Assembly: GCA_002104895.1 (NCBI GenBank)
Contig: MCFG01000172.1
Coordinates: forward strand, 72,030 to 136,029
Origin: Anaeromyces robustus
Lineage: Eukaryota > Neocallimastigomycota > Neocallimastigomycetes > Neocallimastigales > Neocallimastigaceae
Direction of reading: 5' to 3'
Length of the DNA stretch: 64,000 nucleotides
Part shown: one piece after another, positions 11,015 to 35,204 of the stretch
Position numbering within the stretch: position 1 is the first letter of the stretch
Layout of the letters: each line of letters opens with the position of its first letter
The notes under the pieces: model-generated
Told to the model about the DNA's origin: nothing
Database searches by the model: none
Seen by the model: the letters and a program-made list of their open reading frames with translations, nothing else
Translations under genes and position numbers: made by a program

Positions 11015-14000
11015 TTAATCTGTAATATATTTTTTATTTTCAAAATTCTCTTTTAACCATTTGGCAACAACTTCTCCATACTTTTCATGCTTTGTCCAGT
11101 AATTATAAGCTCTACCAAATTCAACACCACGTTTAACTAATGCCTTAGAATTAGGTGGAACAACTCTTTTTGGGTTATCTTTTCCATCAATCCAATCAAG
11201 AATCTCATCAAAAAGTTCTTTATTATTAAGATATTCAGAAATAGTACCTAATAATCTTGAGAAACCAGCGGTACCATTTGGGAATCTATCAATAAAGTAG
11301 GAATCCCAATGTTCCTTAACAAATATCCAACATAAACGAGCAGCACTAGAACCAACATTTCTAATTAATCTCATTAATAAGAAATTGGTATCTTGTTCTC
11401 TAATTTCACTAGAAATTGAAAGTTCAAATAATTTTTCTTGGAGGAATGGAAGAGTAACTGAAGCAAGTGAATCTTTTAGCATATCTTTACGTTGAACAGA
11501 AGTTTCCTTTTTATATTCTTCGAAAATATAATTAAATTCATTTTCATTACCATAACGTATACCAGTAGAATAAATAACACTCATAATATCTTCATCAAAG
11601 TTCTTTGTAAAAGTACCGTTTTTAATTTGTTCAAAATAACTTAAAGCTTGAGTTTTGATTTTCTTTTCACCAACAACGCAAGCTAATCCTAAAATAGCTG
11701 AACGTAATTGTGAACGATTATGAACAGTATTATCTTCAGTTGGTATGTTACTTTCTTCTCTCTTAATGTTTTCTCTTAATTCATTATTGACTTTTTTCAT
11801 ACTTTCATTATCCTTTTCAACAGTGACATTTATTTTTTTTCTACTTTGAGTGTCATTACTTTGATTATAAATAATTGATGGATCATCATTATCATTATTA
11901 TCATTGTTATCATCATCGTTACCATCATCAATTTTATCACCATCACCTTTATCATCATCATTATTATCGTTATTATTATTATCATTTTCATCCTTTTCCT
12001 CCCATCCAATATCATTAGCAATATTTTGAATTAATGAAATTATATATTTTTTAACATTACCATAAGAAGCATTAATGTCAAAGTTTTTAATAAATTGTTT
12101 TAAAATATCAATAGCACTTTGCCAAACAACATTACTTTTTTCGTTCTTTAAAAAGTTAAAACAATCTAAAATAACTTCTGGATTTTCAGTTCGACCATTA
12201 AATAATTGAGATGCTATATCATATAAGAAACCAGCTCTATCAATAGCTGGCATGAAATATAAATCGGATTTCAACCATTCACAAGCAATTTGAATAGATT
12301 CATCATCATATTGAACCTTATAAAAACCAGTTTGATCAGTATTACCTTTAACAAACAATTTAATTGTTGTACTATCATCTTGATCTCTTTTTCTTAAAAT
12401 TCTTGGCAATGGTATTGTTGTTTCTTCTTTTAAGGTGATTGATTTATTTTCTATAATTTCTGGTTTTCCAGTAGCATTGGAAAAGACCAGGTATGAATAT
12501 GGAATAATCCATGTACTATTATCAGCTGGTGCTTTATCATTTATTAATTCCATATGATTTACGAAATAACGTTCTTGTGATAATGAAACATTATTTTCTT
12601 CTTTATTCTCCTTCATCATAACAATTGGATAACCTCCTTGATTAATAAAAGTACCCATTGTTTCAGAAACATGCATTAATGGTTCACCATCTTTATCATA
12701 GGATTCTAAAGCATCCCACAATTGCTTAGTTTCAGCATTATTATATTGATATAAACTTAGGTACTTATGAATACGATTAAAGAAATAATTATTTGAATAA
12801 GAAATTAAATCCCGTTTTACTTGTTTTGAATTAATATTATTTAACCATGATTCAATCATTCTATTTATTCGTTTATTATATAAAATGATTATTATATATT
12901 ATTATTTATTATATAATATATAATATAATTATAAATTTTATTTACCTAATAACTGAAGAACCCTTAGAATATGAAATATCATCGAATAAACCCTAATTGA
13001 GTATAAAATAAAATAAAATATATAATTAATAACATTGTTTATTAAAAAAAAATAAAATAAAATAAAATAAAATAAAAAATATAAAAATATAATTATGATA
13101 AATATAAAACATACAGAAATTTCATCTGGGTCTTTTACTTCAGCATAAATTGGATGAGTATGATGAGATGAATCAGTTTTGAAAGCCTTAAGAACATCCA
13201 TGTAATACCAATGGTATTCCATACCCCATTCTGGTTCTGCAGCATTTACACCCAAATCTTTTTTTTTTTTTTTTACAAGTTGATTATATATTTATTTATT
13301 TTGTTTTGTTTTGTTTTAGTTTTTATTCATTATTTATTTATTTAATAGATAAATGATCATTAAAAAATTATTATAAATATTTTATTAAATTTATAAATAG
13401 TATCAATTTATTTAACCTGAATTATAATATACTTACATTCCATAAATTCTATTTACATTATTCCATGACGATAATTTATATAGATGTATTCATTAACAAG
13501 ATATTAATAAAAATATTATTATACATTATTTATTAATATAATTTATTTAAATTTCGTATGAATAAAAATATAAATATAAAATTACCAGCAAATCCTTCAT
13601 TTAACCATAAATCATCCCACCATTTCATGGTTACAAGACTTAATAATATATTTATATAAAATATTAAAATATTATATTTCAATAAACATAGTAATTAAAT
13701 GATATATATTTTAATAAATTATATTATGTTTATTTAATAAAATTAACTATACTATTTTAATCAAATTAAATTGTATTTATTTTACGACTTACTTTCCAAA
13801 CCATTGATGAGCTAATTCATGAGCAACTACGGTAGCTACATACTGTTTATTTATAGAAGAAGCCTTTTTTTCATCATATAATAAAGCTGTTTCTCTGAAT
13901 GTAATTAAACCCCAATTTTCCATAGCACCGGCTTCAAAATCTGGAATTGCAACCTTAATAATATTTATTAATCATATAAATAATTATAAAGAATCGATTA

Positions 14001-25999: not shown

Positions 26000-28002
26000 T
26001 TAGAAACCAAATACAGATGAATGACCACTGTAACCTCCAGCTTCAGCACCTGTACCATATTTAGCATTCCATTCTTGTAATTGAATAATAATACCTGTCT
26101 TTTCATTTAATGATGGTACAATATCACCACTATCAAATGCCATATCAAAATGTTTCTTTTCAACAATTCTTACAATTTCATTCTTTTTATCTGGTTCAAC
26201 AATTTGTTCTCTAATAGCATTCATTACTAATATATAAATATTATAAAAAATTATAAAATTAAAAATAATATATAATATATAATTAATAATTAATAATTAA
26301 TAATTAATTAAAATTAAATAAAAAAAAAAAAAAAAAATTAAAAAATAAAAAAAAATAATAAAAATCATAAAATATTATTTTATTTTATTTAATTTTATTA
26401 TTTATTATTATTATTTTTCTTTTTCTTTTTTTTTTTTTCTTTTTTTTTTTTAATATTAATATATTGATTTTATAAATATTTACCTGAAGCAATTGATAAA
26501 TTCTTTAAATCACTACCACTCCATTGGTTTGTTTTACTGGCAACATAGGCTAAAATTTCTTTACGTTCTTCCTTTGAATGACCAACAACTTCTTCCTTTA
26601 ATAAAATATCAAGAATTTCTGCTCTGGCTTCAGCATCTGGTAAACTTACAAAGATTCTTCTTGGTAATCTTCTTAAAACGGCTTCATCTAAATCAAATGG
26701 TCTATTTGTGGCACCAATAACAATAACACCATCATTTCTTGAATTAAGACCATCCCATTCTTGCATGAATTCATTTAAGGTATTTACCATATAATGTGGT
26801 GTAAATTCACCTTTTCTAGTTTGTAAAAGAGCATCAATTTCATCAATGAATAAAACACATGGAGAAAGTTTTCTAGCAAGTGAAAAGATAGCTTTAACAT
26901 TCTTTTCATTTTCACCTACCCATTTACTTTGAACATTAGACATTTGAATGTTTAAGAAATTAGCACCACATTGTGAAGCAACAGCTCTAGCAGTTAAAGT
27001 TTTACCTGTACCTGGTGGACCAAAGAGTAATATACCGGTAGTAGTTTCCTTTAAAATACCAGTTTTATATAATTCTGGACGTTTTAATGGTAAAGTAATT
27101 AATTCATTCATAATAACTTTAGTTTTCTTTAAACCACCAATAGAATTAAAAGTGGTTTTAATATCAGATGGGAAAATGAAACATTCTTTAAGAATACGAT
27201 TTTCAAATTTATTTAAAGTGTAACGATCTTTTGGATTTTTAAATATATTAAGATATTCTAAACCATCCTTTATGAATTGTTGAGATTGATAAGTATTGAA
27301 TAAAACTTTATCAGCATTTGTAATATCTTTAATTTGTATTTTCTTAATTAAAGGTTTGGCTAATGGATTTTGATTTTCATTAACAACACCTGTTGAACCT
27401 TCAGCTAATGTAACTAATAATAATCTTTCAATTTCACTTGGATTTAATAATTTTTCTTCAAGGTATAATCCAGTATTATCTGGTGTTTTCATAGTTTCAA
27501 GTTCTTTTAATGGTAATTCACAATTAGCTGCTCTAGCAGCAACATTTAATTCCTTAATATTGTATTTTCTAATTACCTTTTTTAAATCGTTACTAATAAT
27601 TTTTCTGAATTCTTCAAATTCAACTTCCTTTTCAAAAGATGGGAATACCGGTATAACATTTGCACCAACATATTTATCCAATACAGTATCTAATTATATT
27701 AAATTAATTAATTTTTTTTTTTTTTTTTAATATATATATACATAAATAAATAAATAAATAAATATATATTAATAACAATAATAATAATTATAAAGTAAAA
27801 ATAATATATATAAGTATTTACCAAATTCAATCTTTTTTGATTCAATAACATTTCTGTTATCATTATATCTATTCTTTGATTGATCTGGTTCAGCATCAAT
27901 ATCTGGAGCTTTAAAACCTGCAACAACTTCATCATATAAATTACCAAATCTGATGTTACTATAAATATTTTTTAAATTAATTATATAAATAATAATATTA
28001 AT

Positions 28003-33299: not shown

Positions 33300-34010
33300 T
33301 TATTTTGTACAAGAAAAACTAACTAAAGATTTTACATTAGTAATCTCAACATTACTATACATTTTCTTCATACGTTCGGTAAAGCTTTCTAAAGTTTCAA
33401 AAGGAGGAGTGAAATAACCTTTCTTAACATAAAGAGTATTTATAAATTTATCTGTTCTTGAACATTGTCCTTCAATATAAAAACAACCACAGAATCTACC
33501 TCCTTTTTTTAAAACACGATAAGTTTCATTATATGCTGCTTCTTTATCTGGGAAAGCATGAAAACCATTCATTGAAAGAACAATATCAAAACTATTATCT
33601 TCAAATTCTAAATGACCAACATCACCTTGTTGAAATTTAATATGAGTAAGTTGAAGTTTTTCACTTTTTTCTTTAGCTTGATTTAACATTTCTTCAGAAT
33701 AATCTAAACATGTAATATCAGCATCTTTTATAATAGAATAAAATGGAATTGTTAAAACACCTGTACCAACTGGAACATCTAAAAGTTTTCCATTAAAATC
33801 TTCTTCAATATGAGATAATACTTGTTCATAAAGTTTATCATTATCTTCTTTACTATAATCCCATACTACTTTATTAACTAATGAACCTAAAAATGTAGAA
33901 TTTGTTATCATTCCATCATAAAATGAATTACTACCTAAAGATTTATAAGCAGACTTAACTTTACCATAAACATTTTCAGATGTATTTGTAGAATTACCAG
34001 CTTCAGCCAT
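33300..34010 (-). CDS. Class I SAM-dependent methyltransferase (UbiE/Methyltransf_11-like), possibly bacterial in origin
   Basis: A single uninterrupted exon of 236 aa. Rossmann methyltransferase motifs are clear: motif I LLDVPVGTGVLTIPF (SAM binding, about residues 77-91), the acidic residue in ITCLDYSEEML, QGDVGHLEFEDNSFDIVLSM (motifs II/III), and YRVLKKGGRFCGCFYI. The substrate is unknown; UbiE-type similarity does not imply quinone synthesis, which is not expected in an anaerobic fungus. The start is the only nearby ATG and gives a natural N-terminus (MAEAGNSTNTSEN). The lack of introns in a window where most genes have many, and a layout I recall from rumen Clostridia-type proteins, suggest horizontal transfer. 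Codon use is A/T-adapted like the neighbours, so any transfer is not recent. Confidence 0.85.
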   Translation of the reverse strand: MAEAGNSTNTSENVYGKVKSAYKSLGSNSFYDGMITNSTFLGSLVNKVVWDYSKEDNDKLYEQVLSHIEEDFNGKLLDVPVGTGVLTIPFYSIIKDADITCLDYSEEMLNQAKEKSEKLQLTHIKFQQGDVGHLEFEDNSFDIVLSMNGFHAFPDKEAAYNETYRVLKKGGRFCGCFYIEGQCSRTDKFINTLYVKKGYFTPPFETLESFTERMKKMYSNVEITNVKSLVSFSCTK

Positions 34011-34438
34011 TTTTTATTTATATTTTATTTTTATTTTTATTTTTATTGGTAAATATACAAATTAACTTAATAATATTTATTTTAATATATAAATGAATTT
34101 CTATTTTTTTTAAAAAAAAATTTTTTTTTAAAATAATTTGATAATTATGAAATTGAATATTTATGAAAATAAATAAGATATAATTAACTAATTATATATT
34201 ACTAATTATATATATTTAATATAAATGTTTTAATTACAACTGTTATTTTATTTTTTTACATGTAAAAAAAAAGAAGAAATATCTTTGAATATTTAAATAA
34301 ATTTCATTAATAAATGTTTCATATTTAATTTTCTATATAAAAATTAATTTAATTAATATATTTATATTAAAATAAAAAATTACTTTTCATAACCAATCTT
34401 ACTTTTCATAGTTTCCGATATAAATCTCACTGCCATAT

Positions 34439-34439: not shown

Positions 34440-34506
<67 letters not shown>

Positions 34507-34625
34507 ATGAATAAATGAATAAATAAATGAATAAATGAATAAATAAATGAATAAATAAATGAATAAATGAATAAATAAATGAATAAATAAATGAATAAAT
34601 AAATGAATAAATGAATGAATAAATG
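34440..34625. repeat. Tetranucleotide satellite (AAAT)n/(GAAT)n
   Basis: About 46 four-base units. The first about 17 are pure AAAT; the rest mix AAAT and GAAT. On the minus strand this makes a fake ORF of repeating Phe-Ile-Tyr-Leu/Ser. It abuts the left flank of the SINE-like insertion. Confidence 0.98.
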
Positions 34626-34646: not shown

Positions 34647-34656
34647 AAAGATAACG

Positions 34657-34659
<3 letters not shown>
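34647..34659. repeat. Target-site duplication, left copy
   Basis: AAAGATAACGAAT, identical to 35192-35204. It flanks the poly(T) end (3' end on the minus strand) of the retroposon. Confidence 0.92.
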
Positions 34660-34698
<39 letters not shown>

Positions 34699-35191
34699 AT
34701 GACCGGGGTATGCTTCTTTGACCTTCCCTAATGTGAAGCAGTAAGCCCACTCCCTAATAATTAGGTGGTAGTGTGTCCCTCATGGACTGCCATACTGAAA
34801 GTCAGCTTCGGCTTTCCCAATCATGTACAATAATTGCTGAATTTATATCCGCAAGCCACACATTCTCGGTGCCCGACAAACCTCAAACAAGGCTGATGAA
34901 AAGCCCAACGGTCACGTGATTATAATTCACTTGGTTATTCTACGTTATTGATTGGTACAGGTTGGATTTTCTCAAAGAAACAATATTAAAGACTATAAGT
35001 GTCAGGCAGTACAATAAATTATTAAATTAAGAAGTTTGGTATAATTAAGGAAGGACAATACTTAACCTGGCGGTCGAACAAGTCCTGATGAAAAACCCAC
35101 ATAGAGGAAACATCAGACCCGCGGGGTCGAACCAGAGACCTTATGTATGCTAAGACAACGCCTTAACAACCAGGATAAAAACTGGTTTGAC
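34660..35191 (-). mobile_element. tRNA-derived SINE-like retroposon
   Basis: A non-coding insertion of about 530 bp, much richer in GC than its surroundings, read on the minus strand. The 5' head (35191 downwards) is tRNA-like: a box A-like CTGGTTGTTAAGGCG at 35173-35159 and a near-perfect box B GGTTCGACCCC at 35133-35123, about 40 bp apart as in a pol III promoter. A TTAGCAT loop as in tRNA-Ala(AGC) lies between them. The body has no ORF but repeats a motif: GTGGGTTTTTCATCAG (about 35100-35085) and GTTGGGCTTTTCATCAG (about 34908-34892). A second box-B-like GTTCGACCG lies at 35079-35071. The element ends in a pure poly(A) tail (about 36 T on the plus strand, to 34695) and is bracketed by 13-bp direct repeats, so it was inserted by LINE-type retrotransposition. 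The identical duplications point to a fairly young insertion. Confidence 0.88.
35123..35173 (-). promoter_or_regulatory. Internal RNA polymerase III promoter (box A and box B) of the SINE-like element
   Basis: Box A-like at 35159-35173 and box B at 35123-35133. Box B keeps the GGTTCGANNCC consensus exactly. The anticodon-stem pairing between them is degenerate, so this is a promoter relic within a retroposon and not a functional tRNA gene. Confidence 0.8.
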
Positions 35192-35204
35192 AAAGATAAC
35201 GAAT
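35192..35204. repeat. Target-site duplication, right copy
   Basis: AAAGATAACGAAT, a perfect match to 34647-34659, directly outside the tRNA-like 5' end of the retroposon. Confidence 0.92.

What the first reader, a model, noticed from the sequence alone, without database searches (positions are those of the whole stretch)
34647..35204. Complete tRNA-derived SINE-like retroposon with intact target-site duplications
A GC-richer, non-coding block of about 530 bp carries a pol III box A/box B head, a body with a duplicated core motif, a pure poly(A) tail of about 36 nt and perfect 13-bp flanking duplications. Together these are the full signature of a SINE mobilised by LINE machinery. I do not recognise the body, and I do not know of a described SINE family from anaerobic fungi. 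Perfect duplications and an unbroken tail suggest recent activity.
Basis: partly seen in the sequence, partly recalled or inferred. Interest (0 to 1): 0.85.

Follow-up and report, generated by a model that had tools for sequence, protein, structure and literature searches.

The report
Young SINE family, anaerobic fungus
This is one intact copy of a small "copy-and-paste" jumping gene that has spread recently to dozens of places in what looks like an anaerobic gut fungus, probably using the enzymes of larger jumping genes in the same genome; it is a new example of a known kind.

Summary
Window 34696-35191 (minus strand) is a 496-nt non-coding element with a 37-nt A tail and perfect 13-bp target-site duplications. 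It is not single-copy: 67 places in the 70.2-Mb host genome carry its 3' end. Of these 67, 50 keep the 5' end, 15 are 5'-truncated, 2 cannot be judged. Of 50 copies tested, 42 have a duplication of 9 bp or more, all different, against 31 of 2450 mismatched flank pairs; 45 full-length copies differ by 0.5% on average.

The head has a perfect box B, a box A with one mismatch, and partial similarity to host tRNAs; the parent tRNA was not found.

The genome holds subfamily B (about 89% identical) and family C, which shares the head but not the body. C carries a 49-column piece (44 identical) of the coding end of a poly(A)-tailed LINE. Another LINE has an endonuclease and reverse transcriptase and resembles human LINE-1. 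The partner LINE of A and B is not identified.

Host: probably an anaerobic fungus. No SINE from this group turned up in the papers searched. New member of a known kind.

The parts
34647..34659 (.). target-site duplication, copy on the 3' side of the element (AAAGATAACGAAT on +)
   Evidence: identical 13-mer at both ends; mismatched flank pairs reach 9 bp or more in 31 of 2450 cases
34659..34695 (-). 3' poly(A) tail, 37 A, one shared with the duplication
   Evidence: tail length 6-63, median 26.5, in the 50 copies tested
34696..35191 (-). SINE body, family A, 496 nt, 5' GTCAAACCAG ... GGTCATAGC 3'
   Evidence: 67 places with its 3' end and 64 with the A/B head in the genome; all 67 read
35121..35191 (-). 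tRNA-related head, shared with subfamily B (0 substitutions in nt 7-71) and with family C (59 of 66)
35159..35169 (-). box A-like TTGTTAAGGCG, one mismatch to TRGYNNARNNG
35124..35132 (-). box B GTTCGACCC, perfect to GWTCRANNC
34696..34825 (-). structured 3' end (predicted RNA fold closed by AUGAUUGGG with CCCCGGUCAU)
   Evidence: -41.8 kcal/mol, z -2.90, 2 of 200 shuffles as good
35192..35204 (.). target-site duplication, copy on the 5' side of the element

Best explanation
A full-length, recently inserted copy of a tRNA-related SINE family ('A') of an anaerobic fungus. Proposed cycle: RNA polymerase III starts at the 5' GTC using the internal box A/box B and reads through the body and A tail (inferred). 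The A tail and structured 3' end are used by a LINE-encoded endonuclease/reverse transcriptase; the target is nicked, the A tail primes reverse transcription, and the insertion is closed with a duplication of about 9-13 bp. The products of this step are shown: constant 3' end, A tail, varied duplications, 5' truncations. The enzyme is probably supplied by one of the poly(A)-ending LINEs in this genome (inferred for A; supported for sister family C by a shared LINE segment).
For: 67 places with the 28-nt 3' end, 66 exact. All 67 read: 50 keep the 5' end, 15 are 5'-truncated, 2 abut an N run or a contig end. 42 of 50 copies tested have a duplication of 9 bp or more, 42 different sequences; control 31 of 2450. 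Low divergence: A 0.50% mean pairwise over 45 copies, B 0.28% over 14. The head is free of substitutions between A and B over nt 7-71 (43 substitutions in nt 72-496; P about 0.001 with this boundary, chosen after looking; 0.056 by a longest-run permutation). A head versus 12 host tRNAs: score 98, best of 500 shuffles 95. Poly(A)-ending LINEs of three groups are present. One copy of the LINE-1 group has Exo_endo_phos and RVT_1 domains above cut-off, and human L1 ORF2p is among its best solved relatives. Family C carries a LINE-2 piece (44 of 49 columns), 0 of 300 shuffles as good.
Against: No tRNA model match in the head at E<=10 and none by ARAGORN; the head of C is not significantly tRNA-like (39 of 500 shuffles as good). 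A and B contain TTTTT at nt 11 and nt 97, which could stop pol III early. No significant match of the A or B body to four LINE 3' ends from three families (best 6 and 7 of 300 shuffles as good). 8 of 50 copies lack a duplication of 9 bp. Insertion sites show only a weak preference (38 sites: T two bases before the duplication in 27, A as its first base in 22), not the TTTT/AA of L1 (recalled). No transcript data, and no empty allele of the window copy was found.
Confidence: 0.92

Rival explanations
1. A family of retroposed copies of a polyadenylated pol II non-coding RNA (SINE-like, LINE-mobilised, but not pol III driven); each new copy would depend on a few transcribed master loci.
For: Two internal TTTTT runs, imperfect box A, no tRNA model match. 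The insertion signature would be the same.
Against: Perfect box B at a tRNA-like distance, head unchanged between A and B over nt 7-71, and similarity of the A head to host tRNAs; head shared with C whose body differs. 11 of 12 host tRNA genes have a run of 4 or more T in the 65 nt fetched downstream; in 4 of them the first such run is only 4-5 T, so how strongly T5 stops pol III here is unknown.
Confidence: 0.06
2. A DNA transposon (MITE) or a segmental repeat spread by DNA mechanisms.
For: Multi-copy and homogeneous.
Against: No inverted repeat of 12 nt or more at the element's ends, pure A tail of varying length, duplications of varying length, 5' truncations with a constant 3' end.
Confidence: 0.01
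3. Assembly or cross-contamination artefact.
For: Very high identity between copies; evenly spaced tRNA clusters hint that some contigs are duplicated.
Against: Different flanks and different duplications at 42 of 50 places tested, spread over many contigs.
Confidence: 0.01

Closest known systems
MgSINE of Magnaporthe grisea (472 bp, about 100 copies; as given in the introduction of PMC5063351, section read)
   Same: tRNA-derived, about the same length and copy number, in a fungus
   Different: ascomycete (recalled); sequence not compared here
Foxy of Fusarium oxysporum (about 160 copies, active; same source)
   Same: an active fungal SINE family
   Different: sequence not compared here
[quoted passage not shown]
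   Same: tRNA-related SINE whose 3' part resembles a LINE, as in family C here
   Different: there the shared part is described as LINE 3' UTR (Tad1 LINE) and the 3' end is an ACT repeat; in C the shared piece lies in the LINE coding end; A/B show no significant LINE match; the copies read of all three families end in an A tail
L1/Alu-type poly(A) SINE-LINE systems (recalled)
   Same: poly(A) tail, target-site duplications, 5' truncation, no shared tail sequence needed; an L1-like LINE with an endonuclease of the Exo_endo_phos family is present
   Different: tRNA-related rather than 7SL-derived head; partner of A/B not shown; no L1-like insertion motif

Membership tests
SINE | short (100-600 bp), non-coding, dispersed multi-copy | tested here: met
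   496 nt, no long frame, 67 places
SINE | internal pol III promoter (box A and box B) | tested here: inconclusive
   box B perfect, box A one mismatch; two T5 runs inside; no transcription data
SINE | head derived from a small pol III RNA (tRNA, 5S, 7SL) | tested here: inconclusive
   A head scores above all 500 shuffles against 12 host tRNAs (98 against at most 95), C head does not (39 of 500 as good); no Rfam tRNA match
SINE | constant 3' end with A-rich tail or simple repeat | tested here: met
SINE | target-site duplications of variable sequence | tested here: met
   42 of 50 copies with 9 bp or more, control 31 of 2450
SINE | mobilised by a LINE | not testable with these tools
   L1-like and other poly(A) LINEs present; LINE segment in family C only
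stringent-type SINE (shares its partner LINE's 3' tail) | 3' end homologous to a LINE 3' end | tested here: not met
   A and B against four LINE 3' ends of three families: no significant match; other LINEs were not tested. For C: coding-end piece (44 of 49), plus a weak match of its last 27 nt to the last 130 nt of the LINE (29 of 1000 shuffles as good)

The most novel reading that the evidence does not exclude
A currently amplifying, modular SINE lineage of anaerobic fungi. Families A, B and C share one promoter head but carry exchangeable bodies and tails, and family C hijacks its LINE through a captured piece of the LINE's protein-coding end, so that the RNA signal read by the reverse transcriptase would lie inside the LINE's coding sequence rather than in its 3' UTR.
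Probability: 0.3. Interest if true: 0.62.

Novelty: new member of a known kind. Interest (0 to 1): 0.45.

Why it matters
The fungal SINEs listed in the introduction of PMC5063351 (read) are from Magnaporthe, Fusarium, Erysiphe/Blumeria and Nectria, all ascomycetes (recalled), with one oomycete set. A young family with intact duplications in an early-branching anaerobic fungus gives strain markers and a fresh SINE/LINE set to test. Comparing A/B (no detected LINE piece) with C (LINE-derived segment) in one genome would let the question of how LINE enzymes choose SINE RNA be tested directly.

Tried and rejected
Hammerhead ribozyme: the CTGATGA...GAAAC look of the plus strand suggested one; Rfam reports none at E<=10. 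tRNA gene: none by ARAGORN or Rfam.

LINE tail for A/B: tested against the 3' ends of LINE-1 (L107), LINE-2 and a LINE-3 fragment (both in L120) and the 768-nt RT group (L121, same family as LINE-3), so four ends of three families; no significant match. A first run with loose gap costs was not informative and was replaced. The weak match to LINE-1 (A: 6 of 300 shuffles as good; B: 7 of 300) was not taken as homology.

Twin-priming inversion at L079: rejected, because the inverted piece is the head of a separate family C copy beside a truncated A copy.

Empty site: for the left flank of the window copy, 40 of 204 candidate places were scored; the only full-length match is the window itself, so no empty allele could be shown. 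No exact match to the head or to an A/B 3'-end pattern in viral contigs, nor to the head in prokaryote genomes (the tool says that records very near the window's genome may be left out).

Literature: searches pairing SINE with anaerobic-fungus terms gave no relevant paper, judged from the listings; broader searches listed no anaerobic-fungus SINE paper. Read: one passage of PMC6414434; outline, abstract, introduction and one results section of PMC5063351. RepBase and most subscription papers could not be searched.

Full report
What is there. Window 34647-35204 is exactly a 13-bp duplication, 37 T on the plus strand (the A tail of a minus-strand element), a 496-nt body and the second 13-bp duplication. 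The body has 41.5% GC in a window of 16.6% and no long reading frame. Box B is perfect (nt 60-68 of the element); the best box A has one mismatch (nt 23-33) (consensus strings recalled). The repeated core motif is real (14/15), but its second copy is changed in the sister subfamily.

It is a family. The 28-nt 3' end is present at 67 places with up to 3 mismatches, 66 of them exact; the reversed control pattern has none. I read all 67: 52 and 15. In one search, 45 start at nt 1 or 2, one keeps the 5' end but has an internal deletion (C412, L014), and 6 are 5'-truncated. In one search, 3 span the whole element (two with internal gaps), 1 keeps the 5' end with a large internal deletion (L080), 9 are 5'-truncated (L077 and L085 are also rearranged), and 2 cannot be judged (L078 at a contig end, L083 next to N). 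For 50 of the 52 copies (left out: one with N downstream, and C412) I looked for duplications next to the A tail: 42 have 9 bp or more, all 42 different; two have 8, one has 6, five none. The same test on 2450 mismatched flank pairs gives 31 of 9 or more. Tails are 6-63 A, median 26.5. At 38 sites used there is only a weak base preference (T two bases before the duplication in 27, A as its first base in 22; the base just before is biased by how the duplication is called).

Age. Among 45 full-length copies the mean pairwise difference is 0.50%, the largest 1.61%; 15 of 45 equal the majority. Of 58 substitutions against the majority, 47 go from G or C to A or T, as expected for a GC-richer insert decaying in an AT-rich genome.

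Relatives in the same genome. The 43-nt head pattern is at 64 places. Fourteen of these lack the A 3' end; they are subfamily B (501 nt, 13 of 14 ending CCGGATATAG and one CCGGATATAA before the A tail), about 89% identical to A and 0.28% different among themselves; 12 of 14 have duplications of 8 bp or more. A B-type 3' end with up to 2 mismatches is at 22 places; 14 were read, the other 8 were not. Between A and one B copy there are 46 substitutions: 3 in nt 1-6, none in nt 7-71, 43 in nt 72-496. With that boundary, chosen after looking, P is about 0.001; a longest-run permutation gives 0.056. This suggests that the promoter head is constrained, but is not strong proof. A wider head pattern has 130 places, about 66 beyond the 64 of A/B (only the first 100 rows were shown). 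The further rows shown carry the head type of family C: head 59 of 66 identical to A, no significant similarity in the rest (17 of 300 shuffles as good). Six C copies were read: one beside a truncated A copy (L079) and five fetched from the lists. They are 416-418 nt and differ by 0.24% on average. The five fetched copies all have duplications of 10-14 bp and an A tail.

LINE link. Family C aligns to the end of the coding region of LINE-2 over 49 columns, 44 identical (L120 1203-1250; score 182, best of 300 shuffles 93). This piece lies inside the LINE reading frame, shortly before its stop, not in the 3' UTR. One search finds 112 places with this segment: of 100 rows shown, 85 have the C form and 15 the LINE-2 form; the other 12 were not shown. 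The last 27 nt of C and the last 130 nt of LINE-2 are only weakly alike (29 of 1000 shuffles as good). The bodies of A and B match none of four LINE 3' ends (three families) significantly. The LINE 3' ends read run into A: LINE-1, LINE-2, LINE-3. The RVT_1 search scored 150 of 463 candidates; 22 rows share one score and a 762-nt match, a homogeneous LINE group. One copy of it has Exo_endo_phos and RVT_1 above cut-off; in the LINE-2 copy the endonuclease match (Exo_endo_phos_2) stays below its cut-off in the part read. For the LINE-1 copy human L1 ORF2p is among the best solved relatives, after one entry named RNA-directed DNA polymerase. So a poly(A)-type LINE enzyme is available; which one serves A is not shown.

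tRNA origin. The A head scores 98 against the best of 12 host tRNA sequences (six anticodon types by ARAGORN), best with tRNA-Thr; 500 shuffles reach at most 95, mean 60. The C head is not significant (39 of 500 as good). No tRNA model reaches E<=10 for A, nor E<=5 for two C loci and one B locus. I therefore say tRNA-related, parent unknown. Only 12 of the 63 scored tRNA genes were fetched, and the first look had 2506 candidates.

Structure. The 5' 132 nt and the 3' 130 nt fold better than shuffles (z -3.11, 0 of 200; z -2.90, 2 of 200), the whole element less clearly (z -1.69, 4 of 100). No covariation test was made.

Host. All 150 scored CBM_10 (dockerin) matches, of 683 candidates, pass the cut-off; 0 of 14 control genomes has one, but the controls are prokaryotes. 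That many dockerins in a 70-Mb AT-rich genome is, from general knowledge, a mark of Neocallimastigomycota.

Known or new. Fungal SINEs are known (PMC5063351, introduction and one results section read). Paper searches pairing SINE with anaerobic-fungus terms listed nothing relevant. So this is a new member of a known kind, with one less common feature in its sister family C, the captured LINE coding-end segment.

Noticed in passing
L008, L075, L024, L047 (5' flanks of four A copies): Four A copies have duplications that begin right at TTGTATC^A, at the 3' edge of two repeats (shared 5' flank 1223 nt at 99.1% in one pair, 229 nt at 100% in the other). Site preference or chance is not resolved.
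   Followed up: partly
G000 C219/C378 and C213/C353: tRNA genes repeat with the same spacing on pairs of contigs, which suggests duplicated or allelic contigs in the assembly. Many tRNA rows have one identical score; the one fetched of these is tRNA-Arg(TCT).
   Followed up: no
L039 (C768, A copy): This A copy, without a visible duplication, appears to sit inside a Ty3/gypsy-like RNase H reading frame (motif recalled, not searched).
   Followed up: no
rows C24:253339, C261:7790, C289:15565: Three 3' ends that fit neither A nor B; they may be further subfamilies.
   Followed up: no
window 34441-34625: Long AAAT/AATG-type simple repeat directly beside the insertion.
   Followed up: no
window 11015-12898, 26470-27693, 33300-34013 (minus strand): Host genes near by: an ERAP1_C-domain (aminopeptidase-like) protein, an AAA ATPase, and a methyltransferase beside the SINE.
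   Followed up: no
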